Source: Rufibacter hautae
GTDB lineage: Bacteria > Bacteroidota > Bacteroidia > Cytophagales > Hymenobacteraceae
Direction: 5' to 3'
DNA: 64,000 nt
Assembly (NCBI RefSeq): GCF_008271695.1
Contig: NZ_VKKY01000003.1
Coordinates: forward strand, 124,001 to 188,000
In this document: in pieces, positions 41,816 through 48,597 of the stretch
Position numbering within the stretch: position 1 is the stretch's first letter
Layout: each line of letters begins with the position of its first letter
The notes under the pieces: generated by a model
Told to the model about the DNA's origin: nothing
Seen by the model: the letters and a program-made list of their open reading frames with translations, nothing else
Database searches by the model: none
Position numbers and translations under genes: made by a program

Positions 41816-42235
41816 ATGGCTGGAAACGTAACGTTCACCATGATTAAACCAGATGCCGTGAAGGATAACCACATCGGCGGTATCACCAAAATGATGGAAG
41901 AGGCTGGCTTTAGAGTAGTGGCCCTGAAAAAGACCCGCCTTACTGAGGAGCGTGCCGGTCAGTTCTACGAAGTGCACAAGGAGCGTCCTTTCTACGGCGA
42001 CCTGGTGAAATACATGAGCTCTGGACCCATTGTGGCCATGATTCTGGAGAAAGACAACGCCGTGCTTGATTTCCGTACCCTTATTGGTGCTACCAACCCA
42101 GCCCAGGCTGAGGAAGGAACCATCCGGAAGATTTACGCCAAGTCTGTGGAGGCTAACGCCGTTCACGGTTCTGACTCTGACGAGAACGCCCAGATTGAAG
42201 GTGACTTCTTCTTTGGCGCTGACGAGCGTTTCTAA
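41816..42235 (+). CDS. ndk: Nucleoside-diphosphate kinase
   Basis: 139 residues, complete. The phosphohistidine motif NAVHGSDS lies around residues 117-124, and the N-terminus [10 protein letters not shown] is diagnostic. It balances NTP pools by transferring phosphate from ATP in the cytoplasm. Two -7-like boxes (TATTTTTG at 41728 and TAATTTTG at 41768) occur upstream in the divergent gap, neither with a good -33 box. The last two codons and the stop are part of a 38-bp dyad copy. Confidence 0.96.
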
Positions 42236-42264
42236 GCTCTTTTAGAGAAAACATACCCAAAACG
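42227..42264. repeat. 38-bp dyad family copy 18, overlapping the ndk stop codon
   Basis: It starts CGTTTCTAAGCTC and ends CCAAAACG, with a TTTTAGAGAAAA centre. CGT-TTC-TAA encodes the Arg-Phe-stop end of Ndk. Confidence 0.8.
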
Positions 42265-42293
42265 CCTGGCTGCAAAGTCAGGCGTTTTTTTTT
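42259..42293 (+). terminator. Terminator of ndk
   Basis: Stem AAAACGCCTG (42259-42268) with CAGGCGTTTT (42279-42288) followed by T to 42293. It is almost the reverse complement of the hairpin at 43630-43663. Confidence 0.9.
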
Positions 42294-42383
42294 GTGAGCT
42301 TTTGGAGGAGTTTTATCCTGAAACTAGTCAGTTGATAATGATAAAGGTTTAATTTAGAGTATGTTGAACTAAATACCTTAACC

Positions 42384-43538
42384 ATGAAGCTAACCCTACC
42401 CTTGCTCTTTTCCACGCTCCTGTTCTTCGTACTTGTGTGTAGTGCTAACATTTTTCTAGTCCCAGAGCTACAAAGTCATGTGATGCCAGTTACGATATTC
42501 TATGATACAGATTCAAAAGTCACAACCAAAGAGAAGGCATTTATCATAAGGAAGGCCTCTTTAGATACGGTGAGTAATACTTTAGTAGGTGAAGTGAAAG
42601 ATGATTACAAGGATGGTAGTCCAGCAATGCGAGTCACTTACAACGCGAATGGAAAGAATGGAGTGTTTCAGCAGTTCTACCCTAAAAAGCAATTAGAAAT
42701 CCAAGGACAATATGTTGCTAATCAGCCAAACGGGTTATGGAGGTATTATTATCCAGACGGAAAATTAAAGCAGGTCATAGAGTTTCATCCAAACAAGAAG
42801 TTTAGTGTGAAACAATATTTTGACGAAAATGGCCAACAATTACTGAAAGATGGAACTGGAGAGTGGAATACTACGATGCTTGCCAAGTGGGGCGTCTATT
42901 TCAACACAGTAATTGTCAAAAGCCAATGGAAGAATGGGTTAAAGGATGGTCATTGGGAAGTGTCAAGAGGAAATAACAGAAGGTATTTAGTAGAACATTT
43001 TGAAAAAGGTGAGTTCAAGAGAGGTGAATCTTATGATAATCAAGGGGAGAAAATAGTTGGAGAGTATAGCGTTCAGAAAGCAGAATCGTTTCCTTTTTTT
43101 GAAATAGGGGAATACCGGGAGAAGATGGATGTAAGCCAAACCTTGGGTACAAAAGCAAGGGCTCTACGGTATATTCTACGTAAAGAGCATTTAGGTACTC
43201 CAGATACCTCAACAATTGTCTATACTGAAAAAGATAGTTTAGATAAACGGCCGGAGTTTCCAGGAGGCACCCGTGCAATGTTTAAATATTTAGGTGACAA
43301 ATTTAGAATTCCTGAAGACGTCAAGAAAGTTGGCGTTGATGGCGAAGTGGTGATTTCGTTTGTGGTCAGGCCAGATGGAACGACGAAAGATATAGAAATT
43401 GTGAAGCCCTTGTTTCCAAGTATTGATGAGGAGGGCATGAGAGTTGTTGCCAATATGCCTCTTTGGATACCCGGTATTCTAAATGGTAAACCTGTAAATG
43501 TAAGATGTACTGTGCCGTACAGAATTGTAATTCGCTAG
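42384..43538 (+). CDS. Exported protein with MORN-like repeats and TonB C-terminal-like domain (paralogue 1)
   Basis: 384 residues. An N-terminal hydrophobic segment or signal peptide (about 4-24) is followed by a beta-rich region with YwqK/MORN-like repeats (GVFQQFYP, GLWRYYYPDGKLKQVIEF, GTGEWN, QWKNGLKDGHW). The linker KARALRYILRKEHL leads to a TonB-C-like domain (about 285-384; PEFPGGTRAMFKYL, GEVVISFVVRPDGTTKDIEIVK, MPLWIPGILNGKPV). There is no Pro-rich TonB spacer, so classical energy transduction is doubtful. The gene is visibly more AT-rich than its surroundings and is flanked by nearly identical inverted terminators. A paralogue lies at 44668-45801. Confidence 0.8.
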   Translation: MKLTLPLLFSTLLFFVLVCSANIFLVPELQSHVMPVTIFYDTDSKVTTKEKAFIIRKASLDTVSNTLVGEVKDDYKDGSPAMRVTYNANGKNGVFQQFYPKKQLEIQGQYVANQPNGLWRYYYPDGKLKQVIEFHPNKKFSVKQYFDENGQQLLKDGTGEWNTTMLAKWGVYFNTVIVKSQWKNGLKDGHWEVSRGNNRRYLVEHFEKGEFKRGESYDNQGEKIVGEYSVQKAESFPFFEIGEYREKMDVSQTLGTKARALRYILRKEHLGTPDTSTIVYTEKDSLDKRPEFPGGTRAMFKYLGDKFRIPEDVKKVGVDGEVVISFVVRPDGTTKDIEIVKPLFPSIDEEGMRVVANMPLWIPGILNGKPVNVRCTVPYRIVIR

Positions 43539-43629
43539 TTAATGATTAACGTCAATTTTACTGTCCTTGATTGTTACTTATATTGTATAAAGCCGTTGTA
43601 ATCAAGTTCTTAATAGAAGAGCTTTGCAT

Positions 43630-43663
43630 AAAAAACGCCTGACTTTACAGCCAGGCGTTTTTT
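43630..43663. terminator. Terminator between paralogue 1 and the DUF4199 gene
   Basis: Perfect 12-bp stem AAAAAACGCCTG (43630-43641) with CAGGCGTTTTTT (43652-43663). It can serve both convergent genes. It is nearly identical, in inverted orientation, to the ndk terminator. Confidence 0.88.
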
Positions 43664-43673
43664 ATTGGTATGG

Positions 43674-43710
43674 TGTTTTAGGCCTTGTTTACTTGAAATG
43701 GGCTAAAAGC
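43674..43710. repeat. 38-bp dyad family copy 19
   Basis: It includes TGTTTTAGGCCTTG, a TTTACTTGAAA centre and GGGCTAAAAGC. Slightly irregular spacing. Convergent gap. Confidence 0.55.
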
Positions 43711-43748
43711 AGGCCTAGATGCTTAGTGCCTATCCCAAGCCAAGTAGA

Positions 43749-44225
43749 CTAGTATTCTGCCTGACCAGCTTGCCCTCCGGAATTGTCAAACGCCATCATG
43801 AGAATGTAGCTTGTCATGGCGCCCACGGCAGTTCCCAGAATCACCACCGAGCCCAGCACCATTAACAGCGGCAACCGGAAACCAAAGTAATCCTGGTTTT
43901 GCAGGACCCCGGCGTACCCAGGATTAAGGAAGATCGCATGGAAGAGAATAAAGGCTGCGTAGAGCCCGGCCCCCACTAAGCCCACCAGAAAACCAATGGA
44001 CAACCCGGGCAGGTAAGGGGGATGTCTATGCAGGGCGTCATAGTTTTTTCTGAAGGTGTTGATGGCCAGCATCACGGCTATTAGAATGAAGATATTGCTG
44101 CCAAAACGAATGACTTCGCTGTTTTGTAAGCCAACGAAGTTAATAAACAGGTAATAGATGATCATCGCAACGGCGGAGAAGGTGCCATAATAAATACCGA
44201 TGCGTTGGGCTGAATTTGTTGCCAT
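43749..44225 (-). CDS. DUF4199 inner-membrane protein
   Basis: 158 residues with four predicted membrane helices (about 8-30, 40-57, 74-97, 117-142), the layout of the DUF4199 family widespread in Bacteroidota. A Gly/Gln-rich tail follows. No known activity. It is monocistronic on the minus strand between the two TonB-C-like paralogues. Confidence 0.82.
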   Translation of the reverse strand: MATNSAQRIGIYYGTFSAVAMIIYYLFINFVGLQNSEVIRFGSNIFILIAVMLAINTFRKNYDALHRHPPYLPGLSIGFLVGLVGAGLYAAFILFHAIFLNPGYAGVLQNQDYFGFRLPLLMVLGSVVILGTAVGAMTSYILMMAFDNSGGQAGQAEY

Positions 44226-44667
44226 TTGATTCCATTCTTAAAGTAGGGATTGCAATTACCAGAGGATTTGAACGGGCGCTTTTTCTGAGGATTGAAAAAG
44301 GACGATGGGCATTATTTTATACGGGAAGAGTTGTGTTTCATCAACAGGGCATGTTGGAAAGCCATCTTCTGCGGAGGTATGTTTTTGTAACCACCATCCT
44401 TGCCGAATGTTTACTGAAGTTTTTTCCTGCAACACTTCTCAGTTTCAATTCCTAGAGAAACCAACCTGTCTTATCCAAGAAATAGCACTAACTGTTTACA
44501 GGCTACTTTCCTGAAAACACCCTTAATTCATACATTCAGCTTATATATACTTAGAATTCTAAAGAAAGTAGACTCCGTTTTTCGTACTTTTTACAGTAGT
44601 TTTAAGCCTTGTATTCAAAATATATATCAAAAATTAAATACAATAATCTATCCATCAACTATCCTGC
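44226..44667. other. Gene-free gap with one dyad copy
   Basis: About 440 bp between the DUF4199 gene and paralogue 2. A 79-codon plus ORF (44216-44455) overlaps the DUF4199 start and resembles no family, so it is not called. The stretch 44530-44660 is AT-rich and should hold the promoter of paralogue 2. I could not place it firmly. Confidence 0.5.
44493..44530. repeat. 38-bp dyad family copy 20
   Basis: It starts TGTTTACAGGCTAC with a TTTCCTGAAAA centre; the last arm is degenerate (TTAATTCA). It lies upstream of paralogue 2. Confidence 0.6.
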
Positions 44668-45801
44668 ATGGCTCCTATGCGCTACAGTGTTCTCTTGTCT
44701 TTTATCCTGTTCGTTATCCAGCTTGAGAAGGCTGCAGCGCAGGTGGTATCCGTCACTATTTTCTACGATCTAAACAGAGTGGTTACTATCAAGCAGAATG
44801 CCGCTATCATACGCGTGGCGTCTTTTGATACAGTTTCCCTCAAGTTCAAAGGAAAGGTCACCGACTATTTTGCCAACGGGCAGGCTTTTCAGCAGTTTAC
44901 CTATGGTGAGGATGGCAAAGAAGGGATTTACCAGTTGCTTCACCCGAACAAGAAGTTAGACCGGGACGGGTTTTTTAAAGCGAACCAACCGGTTGGCAAA
45001 TGGAAGTTCTACTATCCCGATGGCAAGCCGCTGCAGACCGTGGAGTTTCTGCCCAACCGAGATTATAAAGTGCTGGAGTTCTACAACTTTCTAGGCCAGC
45101 AAATGATCAAAGACGGGACCGGTGCTTGGGAAACCACCAGCCGAATCAGGGTAGGGCTTACCTACTTTGACTTGCTGCTGAACGGGCAATGGAAAGACGG
45201 GGTGAGGACCGGCCAATGGCAGTTCCTGAAGCCAGACGGAAAGAAAGTTCTGGTAAAAGAGTATGAAAACGGGATTGTCAAGAAGAGGAAGTTGTATAAC
45301 CCCAGTAACGGTGGAGTAGCGGATGCCAAATTGCTTCAGGAAGATGAACTCTGGCCTTTCCTGATCTCCCTGCAAGACATGGAACAGCTGAGATTTGACC
45401 CAGATATATTTGACGGTAAAGAAAGGGCATTGCAGTATATTTTAAGGAAAGAACATCTGTTGCCCTTAGATTCACTTAAGCAAGCAGGCAGCATTAAGAT
45501 TGAAAAAGGACCTGAGTTTCCAGGCGGGCAAGAAGCTATGTTCAGATTTATGGGTACCAATTTTAGAATATCCCCTATTGATGCAAGAAGCAGAGTGTCT
45601 GGTACTGTGGTTGTCTCATTTGTGGTGGAAGTAGATGGATCAGTGTCTGATCCCAAAGTAATCAAATCCCTATCAATTGGGCTTGATGCGGAAGCGGTAA
45701 GAGTCATTAGGTTGATGCCCAGGTGGAAACCTGCCATGCTCAACGGTAAACCAGTGCCCTACACCTATACTGTTCCTTACAGCATCAGATTTGGGAACTG
45801 A
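44668..45801 (+). CDS. Exported protein with MORN-like repeats and TonB C-terminal-like domain (paralogue 2)
   Basis: 377 residues with a signal peptide (about 1-24, ending KAAAQ; an alternative ATG is at 44677). It is collinear with the protein at 42384: SVTIFYD near the mature N-terminus, GTGAWET, QWKDGVRTGQW, the linker KERALQYILRKEHL and the TonB-C-like end (GPEFPGGQEAMFRFM, VVVSFVVEVDGSVSDPKVIK, MPRWKPAMLNGKPV). The two clearly arose by duplication. Function unknown; the last third is more AT-rich than the rest. It is followed within 33 nt by a gene sharing the same C-terminal domain, so an operon is likely. Confidence 0.82.
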   Translation: MAPMRYSVLLSFILFVIQLEKAAAQVVSVTIFYDLNRVVTIKQNAAIIRVASFDTVSLKFKGKVTDYFANGQAFQQFTYGEDGKEGIYQLLHPNKKLDRDGFFKANQPVGKWKFYYPDGKPLQTVEFLPNRDYKVLEFYNFLGQQMIKDGTGAWETTSRIRVGLTYFDLLLNGQWKDGVRTGQWQFLKPDGKKVLVKEYENGIVKKRKLYNPSNGGVADAKLLQEDELWPFLISLQDMEQLRFDPDIFDGKERALQYILRKEHLLPLDSLKQAGSIKIEKGPEFPGGQEAMFRFMGTNFRISPIDARSRVSGTVVVSFVVEVDGSVSDPKVIKSLSIGLDAEAVRVIRLMPRWKPAMLNGKPVPYTYTVPYSIRFGN

Positions 45802-45834
45802 TAAACCAATTAAAGTAATTGAAAATAAACCCAT

Positions 45835-46788
45835 ATGTTCCTGAAGTCATTTGCCCCCGGTTTTTTGCTGTTGCTCTTACTTCCCATGCTAAGCCTTGGG
45901 CAGCAAGTATCCCCGCCGGATTACAGGGAAGAGATCGCCAGACACCGTGCCCATGAAGACAGCATTTTTAAGTTCGATGAACACTCTCCGCTGAAAGCCG
46001 AGGCAAAGGCGGATTTCAAGGGCTTAGAGTATTTCCCCGTGAACGAAGCCTACCGCGTTAGGGCAAAGTTTATCAGAAACACACAGGAAACGGTGTTCGT
46101 TATGCCTACCACCGGCACCCGCACCCCAGAGTACGTGAAATATGGCGAGTTGCATTTCAGGCTGCAGGGCCAGAACCTCAAACTGAGCGTGTACCAGAAC
46201 CAGGAACTAAAAAAGCAGCCCAAGTACCTGACCTACCTGTTCATCCCCTTCACCGATGCCACCACGGGCCAGGAAACCTATGCCACCGGCCGCTACCTTG
46301 ACTTCACCATCCCCATGGGCACCGACAGCGTGGCGCTGGATTTCAACAAAGCCTACAACCCGTACTGCGCCTACGGCGATGGCTATTCCTGTCCCATCCC
46401 GCCCAAAGAAAATAAATTGCCCGTGCGCATTGAGGCAGGCGTGAAGAACTATGAGAAAGCTGAGGAGAGAGGTAAAGAAAGTGCGATTCCAGTTGGGCCA
46501 GAGTTTCCCGGGGGAATAGCCGGTGTGCTTAAATTTATTTCAAAGAAATATAAGATGCCACGAGACGTGCGGAAAGAAGGAAGTTTCAAAGGAACAATAG
46601 AAGTGTCATTTGTAATCTCACCTAGTGGTGAAGTAGGAGATATAAAGATCATAAAATCTCTTTCTCCTAGTTTAGATGCTGAAATGATAAGAGTAGTAAA
46701 CAAGATGCCTCGTTGGAAACCCGGAACAATAAATGGTGTGCCGACAGCCTATAGATATTCTTTACCCTACTGGATTTTTCATAAATAA
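45835..46788 (+). CDS. DUF1684 lipoprotein-like domain fused to a TonB C-terminal-like domain
   Basis: 317 residues. Signal peptide about 1-22. Residues 25-205 form a complete DUF1684 domain (LEYFPVNEAYRV, YVKYGELHF, LFIPFTDATTGQETYATGRYL, YNPYCAYGDGYSCPIPP). Residues from about 215 repeat the TonB-C-like domain of the two upstream proteins (GPEFPGGIAGVLKF, SFVISPSGEVGDIKIIKS, MPRWKPGTINGVPT). DUF1684 proteins normally end after the NKLPVRIEAGVKNY segment, which here is followed directly by the extra domain. Base composition changes from GC-rich to AT-rich at the junction (about 46470-46490), so the fusion looks recent. Role unknown. Confidence 0.85.
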   Translation: MFLKSFAPGFLLLLLLPMLSLGQQVSPPDYREEIARHRAHEDSIFKFDEHSPLKAEAKADFKGLEYFPVNEAYRVRAKFIRNTQETVFVMPTTGTRTPEYVKYGELHFRLQGQNLKLSVYQNQELKKQPKYLTYLFIPFTDATTGQETYATGRYLDFTIPMGTDSVALDFNKAYNPYCAYGDGYSCPIPPKENKLPVRIEAGVKNYEKAEERGKESAIPVGPEFPGGIAGVLKFISKKYKMPRDVRKEGSFKGTIEVSFVISPSGEVGDIKIIKSLSPSLDAEMIRVVNKMPRWKPGTINGVPTAYRYSLPYWIFHK

Positions 46789-46851
46789 GAAAGAAACCGG
46801 CCCTAAGTTTTGGAGACAGTAAAAAGGCTAGTAAGAAGAAAAACTGAAAGG

Positions 46852-47412
46852 CTATTGGACCTTCACGCTAGTCAGGACTCGATTGATAGCGTTATCGGTT
46901 TTCAAATCATCCATCCCGAAGATGGACAGGACATAGATCTTTCCTTTTTGATCAGAATAGGCGTAGCCTTTCACCATCATCTTTTCGGTGCCTCTGGTGA
47001 AGGTTCCGGTAGCCAGGTAAGTGCTTTTCTGGTTATTCTGCTCCAGGAAATCTATCTGGAAATCCGTGCCTTGCAGTTGCACTACCGCATTCTGAATAGC
47101 TCCCTGTAAGCTGCCCTGAACATTGCCCGCGCCATTTTTGATATGCATAAACATGCCGTAGATAATCACCTGATCCGTCTTGCCCATGTAAGACTCCACC
47201 CCATGGAAAAGCGCTTTCTGCTCGGCGGGTAGGGCAAAATCCATTTTCTCCAAAGCCGCTGGCGTGGAAACGGAAAGACCTTGGAAAGTACTCAGCACCC
47301 ATGGTTTTTCCTCCATTATGCGAAAAGGTGCCGGAACGCCGGGGGCAGCAGCCAGGTTAGAAAATGGCAATAAAGCCATCGCAAGGCCTACCGTAAGCTT
47401 TGAGAATTTCAT
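46852..47412 (-). CDS. Exported protein of unknown function
   Basis: 186 residues with a clear signal peptide (about 1-22, ending NLAAA). The mature part is a single soluble alpha/beta domain with YMGKTDQVIIYGMFMHIKNG and a conserved-looking C-terminus (FGMDDLKTDNAINRVLTSVKVQ). It resembles periplasmic proteins that detect or buffer small ligands only in general shape. No family is recognised. It is transcribed alone on the minus strand, convergent with the DUF1684 fusion gene. Confidence 0.75.
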   Translation of the reverse strand: MKFSKLTVGLAMALLPFSNLAAAPGVPAPFRIMEEKPWVLSTFQGLSVSTPAALEKMDFALPAEQKALFHGVESYMGKTDQVIIYGMFMHIKNGAGNVQGSLQGAIQNAVVQLQGTDFQIDFLEQNNQKSTYLATGTFTRGTEKMMVKGYAYSDQKGKIYVLSIFGMDDLKTDNAINRVLTSVKVQ

Positions 47413-47478
47413 TTGGGAATAGTAAGATGGAATATAAATAGGGGAGAGAAAAGCTGTTCTGTAGGTAATTCCACGCCT

Positions 47479-48597
47479 TTAGAGACTTCCCGTTTTTCGC
47501 TCTCTTTCCTCAGAAACAGGCTTTAAACGCAATTGCCCTTCTTCCTCCTCATCCTCGGGATGCTCACCGAAGACGCGCAGCACCCAGCGGGGCAGGAAGA
47601 AAGAGCCCAGAATGAGGTACAGGTAATACGTCACCACGCGGTACAGCAGAATGATCACCGTAGTGAAACGGCCCAGGAACTGCCCGAAGAACGTGGGGAA
47701 AGCCACCTCGGCGATACCAGCCCCGCCGGGCGTCACCGCCACCAGCAGCACAATCTTGTAGACCATGTTGCGGGAGAAAATGAGCACGTGGTCATGAAAG
47801 CTGATGTCTGTGAAGGCGGCGATTAGGCAGTTGATCACAAAATAGCGGGCGGTCCAGACGAAGGCGGTGCTCAGGGCGGCGTTGGCCCAATACCCGAAGG
47901 TGCTGCCTTTCAGTTGCTGCGAAGCCCACACCAGCTCGTTTCCGTTCTTGTACGCGGCAGCCCGCCAGCGGCGTGTTAACTTGAAAGAAGTGGCCCGCAA
48001 GAAGATTCGTTTTACCGCAGTAGGGTTAATCAGGAGGCCGTAGGCCATCAAGAAAGCGTAGAAAGCAATAAGAATGTAACTAACCGCAAAAGCGATCTCC
48101 AGACTCTGCGTCACCGAGAATTCCATGGCAGAAACCTCAGGGAAGATAGCGCCAGCCGTAATCAGGAAAACCAAAGGCACGGCAATGATGAAGTACAGGT
48201 TGTCCATCATGGCCGTGACCATCACGTAGGCCAGGGATTTTCCAAGGCTCAGGCCTTCTTTGTTCAAAATAAAGGCCGCCACCGTGGAGCCGCCCACCAC
48301 CGAGGGCATCACGCAGGAGGCGAACTCCCACAGCATGATCACCTCAACGCTCTTTTTCCAGCTCAGGAACTTCTCCGTCACGTACCTGATGCGGTAAATG
48401 TACCCGAAGTCGCGCACCACCAGCACCGCAAAGGTCATGAAGAGCCAGAACGGCTTGGCATTGTAGAGCGGCGAGAAGTCCATCTGGGCGCTGTCTCTAT
48501 AGAACATGTACCCGATGACGCCCAGCCCAATCACCACTGGAATGAGAATGCGTTGCGGCGTGAAGTACGAGAGCAGTTTCTTACGATTCAGATCCAT
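47479..48597 (-). CDS. LPG-synthase-type membrane protein (flippase-like, UPF0104)
   Basis: 372 residues with about eight membrane helices and the family's conserved segments FASCVMPSVVGGSTVAAFIL and VTPGGAGIAEVAF. This domain occurs in lysylphosphatidylglycerol synthase N-termini and as stand-alone putative lipid flippases. No aminoacyl transferase domain is attached. Inner membrane. The start overlaps the end of scpA by 17 nt, so translation is probably coupled. The C-terminal codons overlap a 38-bp dyad copy, giving a charged tail (SEERERKTGSL). Confidence 0.85.
   Translation of the reverse strand: MDLNRKKLLSYFTPQRILIPVVIGLGVIGYMFYRDSAQMDFSPLYNAKPFWLFMTFAVLVVRDFGYIYRIRYVTEKFLSWKKSVEVIMLWEFASCVMPSVVGGSTVAAFILNKEGLSLGKSLAYVMVTAMMDNLYFIIAVPLVFLITAGAIFPEVSAMEFSVTQSLEIAFAVSYILIAFYAFLMAYGLLINPTAVKRIFLRATSFKLTRRWRAAAYKNGNELVWASQQLKGSTFGYWANAALSTAFVWTARYFVINCLIAAFTDISFHDHVLIFSRNMVYKIVLLVAVTPGGAGIAEVAFPTFFGQFLGRFTTVIILLYRVVTYYLYLILGSFFLPRWVLRVFGEHPEDEEEEGQLRLKPVSEERERKTGSL
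47491..47529. repeat. 38-bp dyad family copy 21 (39 nt), inside the 3' end of a gene
   Basis: It starts CGTTTTTCGCTCTC, has a TTTCCTCAGAAA centre and ends TTTAAACG. It overlaps the last 17 codons of the LPG-synthase-type gene, so this copy is translated. Confidence 0.65.

What the first reader, a model, noticed from the sequence alone, without database searches (positions are those of the whole stretch)
45835..46788. Recent fusion of a DUF1684 domain to a TonB-C-like module, with a base-composition switch
The DUF1684 half is GC-rich like the genome; from about 46470-46490 the sequence becomes AT-rich and encodes the same module that ends the two upstream paralogues (42384 and 44668). Directly after the stop lies GAAACCGGCCCTAAG, which looks like only the right half of a 38-bp dyad. 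This suggests the original 3' end, including the dyad's left half, was replaced.
Basis: partly seen in the sequence, partly recalled or inferred. Interest (0 to 1): 0.6.

Follow-up and report, generated by a model that had tools for sequence, protein, structure and literature searches.

The report
Swapped TonB tail on old fusion
A probably periplasmic protein of the bacterium Rufibacter keeps the same front half from species to species but has had its TonB-like tail replaced more than once, so the sudden change in DNA composition seen here most likely marks an exchanged tail and not a newly made fusion.

Summary
The two-domain gene and the composition step are real: DUF1684 plus TonB_C, third-position GC falling from 72% to 29% at nt 46450. 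"Recent fusion" is wrong: 13 of 16 genomes of the genus (Rufibacter) share it at the same locus, and no listed relative outside the genus is fused. What changed is the tail. Four species with DUF1684 domains 90-92% identical have TonB_C tails 36-53% identical, while the neighbouring MORN gene's tails are 77-85% identical in the three of them that have it. Tail and DUF1684 trees conflict, and AU tests reject forcing either onto the other; at least six tail changes are needed among 13 species. The nearer upstream paralogue is rejected as sister of the tail. No donor was found; the closest tails are on other DUF1684 genes of the genus, 51-54% identical. The half-dyad is no better than chance. Best reading: serial replacement of a TonB-fold docking tail on a conserved DUF1684 protein. 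Function and route of exchange are inferred, not shown.

The parts
45835..46458 (+). Signal-peptide-like N-terminus plus DUF1684 domain (residues 1-208), the part shared with sister species
   Evidence: Pfam PF07920 E 5.9e-49; 90-92% aa identity to G003/G006/G011 over residues 30-206; signal peptide judged by eye
46366..46392 (+). Cx7C motif of DUF1684 (C178, C186), the only two cysteines of the protein
   Evidence: present in 15 of 15 DUF1684 domains of the locus; Cx7C described for the DUF1684 protein HVO_1043 in PMC9426492 (passages)
46444..46474 (+). Junction: GC3 change-point (best nt 46450) and loss of similarity between sister species
   Evidence: change-point; identity falls from about residue 205-209 on
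46459..46500 (+). Variable linker (residues 209-222)
   Evidence: pLDDT under 50 over residues 174-216 in the model
46501..46785 (+). TonB_C tail (residues 223-317), class A
   Evidence: PF03544; Foldseek match to TonB CTD 6i97_D, rmsd 1.5 over 77 columns; classes
46789..46851 (.). 3' flank without the strong hairpin of most orthologues; holds GAAACCGGCCCTAAG (46793-46807)
   Evidence: best 50-nt fold -12.7 in the 120 nt after the stop, against -25 to -42 in 10 of 14 flanks; half-dyad match not beyond chance
44668..45801 (+). Upstream MORN_2-like TonB_C gene; its tail serves as control
   Evidence: tails 77-85% identical among G000, G003, G006
42384..43538 (+). Second MORN_2-TonB_C gene, AT-rich throughout (GC3 37%)
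41816..42235 (+). ndk-like gene (label recalled), conserved left border of the variable interval
   Evidence: found in 16 of 16 genomes
47479..48597 (-). Conserved protein (called LPGsyn in my scripts; label recalled), right border of the variable interval
   Evidence: present after the interval in 15 of 16 loci, all but G007

Best explanation
An old, genus-wide DUF1684-TonB_C fusion whose C-terminal TonB_C tail has been replaced several times by recombination at the domain boundary. Shown by computation: synteny, sharp junction, conflicting trees. The ancestral tail was probably class B; in the window's species a class A, AT-rich tail stands in its place, while its nearest sampled relative G006 has a class C tail, so at least one of the two changed after they split. 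Inferred: the protein is exported to the periplasm, the DUF1684 domain with its Cx7C pair does the constant job (perhaps thiol chemistry), and the TonB-CTD fold, here without TonB's membrane anchor, is a docking module binding a partner by strand addition, so that changing the tail changes the partner. Route of exchange inferred: recombination with another strain's allele, or with a tandem DUF1684-TonB_C neighbour such as the one G010 still has.
For: DUF1684 gene at the same locus in 14 of 16 genomes, fused in 13. Identity falls in the windows starting at residues 200-210 in all five G000 pairs profiled. Six pairs among G000/G003/G006/G011: DUF1684 90-92%, tails 36-53%; MORN-gene tails in G000/G003/G006: 77-85%. 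G003's tail is 72% identical to that of G001 (DUF1684 74%) but 38% to that of its close relative G000 (DUF1684 90%). Tail tree: G000+G007 99/96, G006+G011+G015 100/97, class B with D 99/98; DUF1684 tree: G000+G003+G006+G011 98/96. AU: the four tails as one clade p 0.0006, G000+G006 7e-5, G000+G003 4e-5, G001+G015 2e-55; DUF1684 forced to tail classes: p 0.012, 0.005, 0.0003. Flanking-gene tree joins G000+G006 99/96 and rejects G000+G007 p 9e-7; fewest tail changes six among 13 species. GC3 step. TonB-CTD fold.
Against: No donor was found: the nearest tails are only 51-54% identical, so 'recent' rests on composition and on the sister comparison. Composition is weak evidence of a foreign tail: tail GC3 is under 50% also in G006, G007, G010, G010b, G011, G014 and G015, including class B tails, and in both upstream genes. 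Class C is loose (G006 53-54% to the other two). G010b's tail, though second nearest to the window's, is as near to several other TonB_C tails and stands outside the G000+G007 group, which weakens the tandem route; its flank also keeps a hairpin. One genome per species: no strain-level polymorphism could be seen. AU groups were chosen after seeing alignment and trees. Most inner branches of the DUF1684 tree are weak. The tail evolves somewhat faster than DUF1684 even without a swap (G008/G012: 92 against 82). Nothing here tests binding or function.
Confidence: 0.75

Rival explanations
1. The DUF1684 half moved, not the tail: tandem DUF1684-TonB_C paralogues with different tails existed, and gene conversion or differential loss left similar N-terminal halves on different old tails.
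For: G010 has two DUF1684-TonB_C genes in tandem with different tails; the tails of G000, G007 and G010b are about equally far apart (51-54%).
Against: The DUF1684 tree keeps G000, G003, G006 and G011 together (98/96) as the flanking-gene trees do (81/83 and 97/98), so the N-terminal half tracks the species and the tail does not; only 1 of 16 genomes has a second DUF1684 gene at the locus.
Confidence: 0.15
2. No replacement: one inherited tail diverges very fast under relaxed or diversifying selection.
For: The tail is generally less conserved than DUF1684 (for example G002-G010 78 against 65).
Against: Close relatives have unlike tails while distant ones have like tails (G003-G001 72%, G003-G000 38%); AU rejects the single-clade tree; the same kind of tail on the neighbouring gene is 77-85% identical.
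Confidence: 0.06
3. A recent fusion in the window's lineage, from the TonB_C of an upstream paralogue.
For: Composition step at the domain boundary; TonB_C genes with AT-rich tails lie directly upstream.
Against: 13 of 16 genomes share the fusion; G000 tail + own MORN tail of 44668 rejected, p 0.0005; tail 46-49% identical to the upstream ones.
Confidence: 0.02

Closest known systems
DUF1684 family (PF07920); solved members Halobacterium Q9HRE7 (4dlh, 4fj4, 2lok) and Haloarcula rrnAC0354 (2lnu)
   Same: Same domain (phmmer E 2.8e-29 and 3.6e-30; Foldseek) and a Cx7C pair as described for HVO_1043 (PMC9426492, passages)
   Different: Those matches cover DUF1684 only; this one is apparently exported and carries a C-terminal TonB_C tail
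TonB energy transducers, C-terminal domain (PF03544)
   Same: Fold of the tail (6i97_D rmsd 1.5)
   Different: No SxHxLxS motor motif in the protein and only 2 prolines in the linker; the tail is on a DUF1684 protein
Proteins of the same genome with TonB_C on other front halves (M56 peptidase-TonB_C, MORN_2-TonB_C)
   Same: Same tail family
   Different: The MORN tails compared largely follow the species tree; the DUF1684 tails do not
Polymorphic C-terminal cassette systems (polymorphic toxins, restriction specificity subunits; recalled)
   Same: Constant front half, sharp junction, exchanged module
   Different: The exchanged module is a TonB fold, not a toxin or DNA-recognition domain; immunity genes were not looked for systematically

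Membership tests
DUF1684 (PF07920) | Profile match above gathering score | tested here: met
   166.4 bits against cut-off 25
DUF1684 (PF07920) | Cx7C pair reported for HVO_1043 (PMC9426492) | tested here: met
   C178/C186; 15 of 15 DUF1684 domains at the locus
DUF1684 (PF07920) | Thiol chemistry | not testable with these tools
   needs an assay; only a proposal in the paper passages read
TonB energy transducer | TonB C-terminal domain | tested here: met
   PF03544 46 bits, cut-off 24.6; fold match; but under the cut-off of NCBIfam TIGR01352, 23.8 against 27.1
TonB energy transducer | N-terminal helix with SxHxLxS motor motif (PMC12204202, passage) | tested here: not met
   motif absent
TonB energy transducer | Central periplasm-spanning region (proline-rich, recalled) | tested here: not met
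   DUF1684 in its place; 2 prolines in residues 205-222
TonB energy transducer | Binds TonB boxes of outer-membrane receptors | not testable with these tools
   needs a binding assay
Polymorphic C-terminal cassette system | Conserved N-terminal part with unlike C-terminal modules at one locus | tested here: met
Polymorphic C-terminal cassette system | Stock of spare cassettes or immunity genes beside the locus | tested here: inconclusive
   only G010 has a tandem gene with another tail; spare cassettes and immunity genes were not searched for systematically

The most novel reading that the evidence does not exclude
The locus is a specificity-switching system: a constant periplasmic DUF1684 domain carrying an exchangeable TonB-fold docking tail, in which selection by changing outer-membrane partners (or by phages and bacteriocins that use them) keeps several tail classes in circulation, as target-recognition domains are exchanged in restriction systems.
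Probability: 0.25. Interest if true: 0.7.

Novelty: new variant of a known kind. Interest (0 to 1): 0.5.

Why it matters
TonB_C tails on proteins that are not TonB recur in this genome, with no function known to me. A locus where evolution exchanges that tail, while the neighbouring gene's tail is inherited normally, points to the tail as a partner-choosing module and gives a ready set of natural chimeras to test it. It also warns that a composition step inside a gene may mark module replacement, or only the usual make-up of a module, rather than the birth of a fusion.

Tried and rejected
Upstream paralogue as source of the tail: AU test rejects G000 tail + MORN tail of 44668; the one at 42384 was not AU-tested. 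Donor elsewhere: 204 family genomes, 390 genomes drawn from the order, plasmids (8 records, at most 44% identity), phages (9 records, at most 46%, none covering 80% of the query): nothing closer than the DUF1684 genes of G007 and G010. Class C tail in other genes: best are the DUF1684 genes of G015 and G006 (170 and 121 bits), then G010b (105) closely followed by a TonB_C gene of another genus (102). Other relatives of the tandem DUF1684b of G010: the ordinary DUF1684 genes at 36-44%, nothing closer. A first, too strict dyad pattern found nothing. All-position GC change-point: not beyond shuffles. Model of the whole protein: mean pLDDT 64.6; only the tail (88-96 per block from residue 221) is reliable, DUF1684 is poorly modelled from 14 sequences. 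G009's lone DUF1684: nested in the rooted flanking-gene tree (89/87 and 85/81), so loss of the tail is likelier than an ancestral state, but this is weakly supported.

Literature: DUF1684, 1 paper: PMC9426492, passages read; 2 papers; passages of PMC12204202 read, the other not opened; no paper; 4 papers, listing only; 2 papers, listing only. On those searches I saw no report of exchange of TonB_C tails; the library lacks most subscription papers.

Full report
What was claimed.

Check. The gene and both domains are as described, and both upstream genes end in TonB_C. The switch is sharp in third codon positions: 71.7% GC before and 29.5% after codon 205 (nt 46450, two-unit interval 46444-46474), a gain of 26.8 log units where 5000 shuffles reached at most 11.6; with all positions counted the step does not exceed shuffles. 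The tail's GC3 (29.5%) is the lowest of the TonB_C stretches I measured in this genome: eleven elsewhere have 40 to 69%, the two upstream tails 35 and 41%. So AT-rich tails are a feature of this cluster, and the step alone does not show foreign origin.

The fusion is old. The assembly belongs to Rufibacter: the same-genus genome G006 has a contig of the same length (1383058) and match position as the Rufibacter sp. SYSU D00344 contig found. Of 16 genomes of the genus, 13 carry DUF1684-TonB_C at the same place after an ndk-like gene; G009 has DUF1684 alone, ending at the junction (..EAGEKTYEK, then stop); G004 and G013 have no close orthologue at the locus.

The tail changes. Over residues 30-206 the window's protein is 90, 92 and 90% identical to those of G003, G006 and G011; over residues 219-315 it is 38, 43 and 36%. 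All six pairs among these four species give 90-92% and 36-53%. Identity falls in the windows starting at residues 200-210 in all five G000 comparisons profiled (alignment). G003's tail, in contrast, is 68-72% identical to those of G001, G002, G010 and G014, whose DUF1684 domains are only 73-75% identical to its own. Tails thus fall in classes: A (G000, G007), B (G003, G002, G001, G014, G010), C (G006, G011, G015; loose), D (G008, G012; joined to B in the tree), E (G005); the tail of the second G010 gene, G010b, resembles A but stands apart in the tree.

Control. The neighbouring MORN gene also ends in TonB_C. In the three of these four genomes that have it (G000, G003, G006) those tails are 85, 78 and 77% identical, against 36, 41 and 41% for the DUF1684 gene's tails. 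The neighbour's tails largely follow the species tree. So neither the locus nor this kind of domain is hypervariable as such.

Trees. DUF1684 domains group G000, G003, G006 and G011 (98/96). Flanking genes do so with 81/83 in the rooted protein tree and 97/98 in the DNA tree, and join G000 with G006 (99/96; 100/100). Tails instead join G000 with G007 (99/96) and G006 with G011 and G015 (100/97). AU tests reject the four tails as one clade (p 0.0006), G000+G006 (7e-5), G000+G003 (4e-5), G003+G006+G011 (2e-5), G001+G015 (2e-55) and G000 with its own MORN tail of 44668 (0.0005); on the DUF1684 side they reject the class A pair (0.012), class C (0.005) and class B (0.0003). The flanking genes reject G000+G007 (9e-7). 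These groups were chosen after seeing the data. The tail class needs at least six changes on the rooted species tree of 13 fused genes. B-like tails stand on both sides of the deepest split of the genus (85/63 on one side), so B is probably ancestral.

Source. The nearest tails to the window's, in 204 genomes of the family, are those of the DUF1684 genes of G007 (54%) and G010b (51%); other TonB_C genes are further (123 and 116 bits, then 94). Searches of 390 genomes of the order, of plasmids and of phages gave nothing closer. G010 carries two DUF1684-TonB_C genes overlapping by 4 bases with different tails; a deletion or crossover between such neighbours could make a gene like this one. Against that, G010b's tail is as near to several other TonB_C tails (51-55%) as to class A. 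Exchange with another strain's allele is the alternative; I cannot choose between them.

3' end. The 120 bases after the stop hold no strong hairpin in G000 (best 50-nt fold -12.7) or in G007 (-11.8), the two class A genes; 10 of 14 flanks examined have one of -25 to -42, that of G010b included, while G012 (-13.5) and G009 (-17.9) also lack it in that range. This agrees with a replaced 3' end but is not proof. The 15-mer is a poor match to the dyad's right half (5 of 15 mismatches, 0.13 expected per 63 bp).

What it does. DUF1684 has solved relatives in haloarchaea, one crystallised with mercury. A Haloferax member was put in the thiol-relay group because of a conserved Cx7C pair (PMC9426492, passages); the window protein has that pair as its only cysteines, and all 15 DUF1684 domains of the locus keep it. 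The tail folds as a TonB C-terminal domain (pLDDT 88-96 per block; 6i97_D rmsd 1.5). A leader judged by eye as a signal peptide, no SxHxLxS motif and DUF1684 in place of a spacer speak against an ordinary energy transducer. TonB CTDs bind partners by strand addition (PMC12204202, passages). I therefore infer an exported DUF1684 protein docked by its tail to a partner at the outer membrane, with tail exchange changing the partner. That step is not shown.

Verdict. Observation confirmed except for the half-dyad; interpretation partly supported: not a recent fusion but repeated replacement of the tail of an old one. Gene labels ndk, LPGsyn, ScpA and DHH are recalled, not tested.

Noticed in passing
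window, 28 places, e.g. 4846, 21654, 33890, 53723, 56867: An abundant palindromic repeat, GTTTnnGGCCTGTTTTC-nn-GAAAACAGGCCnnAAAC: 28 copies at up to 10 of 30 mismatches in the window (0 in 10 Markov shuffles); by the script's ORFs and the ndk-like gene, 25 lie between genes and 3 overlap gene 3' ends. In 198 kb of 16 Rufibacter loci 70 half-sites, 65 with a partner, all 65 at a 19-nt spacing (null for any partner 55 of 2000); 0 half-sites in 87.6 kb of 8 loci from other genera of the family. REP-like element or bidirectional terminator; a mobilising enzyme was not looked for.
   Followed up: partly
window 42236-47478 and loci L054-L066, L071, L072: The interval between the ndk-like gene and the conserved gene at 47479 is variable in the genus: MORN-TonB_C genes, proteins of about 314-346 aa ending in YEYEY-like motifs, a DUF4199-like gene, DUF1684-TonB_C and a 186-aa gene come, go and change order.
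   Followed up: partly
window 46852-47412 (-): 186-aa gene with no family above cut-off, found in only 4 of 16 genomes of the genus (G000, G003, G012, G014), in the same interval.
   Followed up: no
L213:4541-6523 and L213:7774-10242: In the same genome a 661-aa protein with five TonB_C stretches and an 823-aa M56 peptidase with two TonB_C stretches, near each other.
   Followed up: no
L063 (G010), reverse strand: Tandem DUF1684-TonB_C genes overlapping by 4 bases, DUF1684 domains only 43% identical, with different tails; in the same genome ScpA is split into two ORFs, possibly an assembly error.
   Followed up: partly
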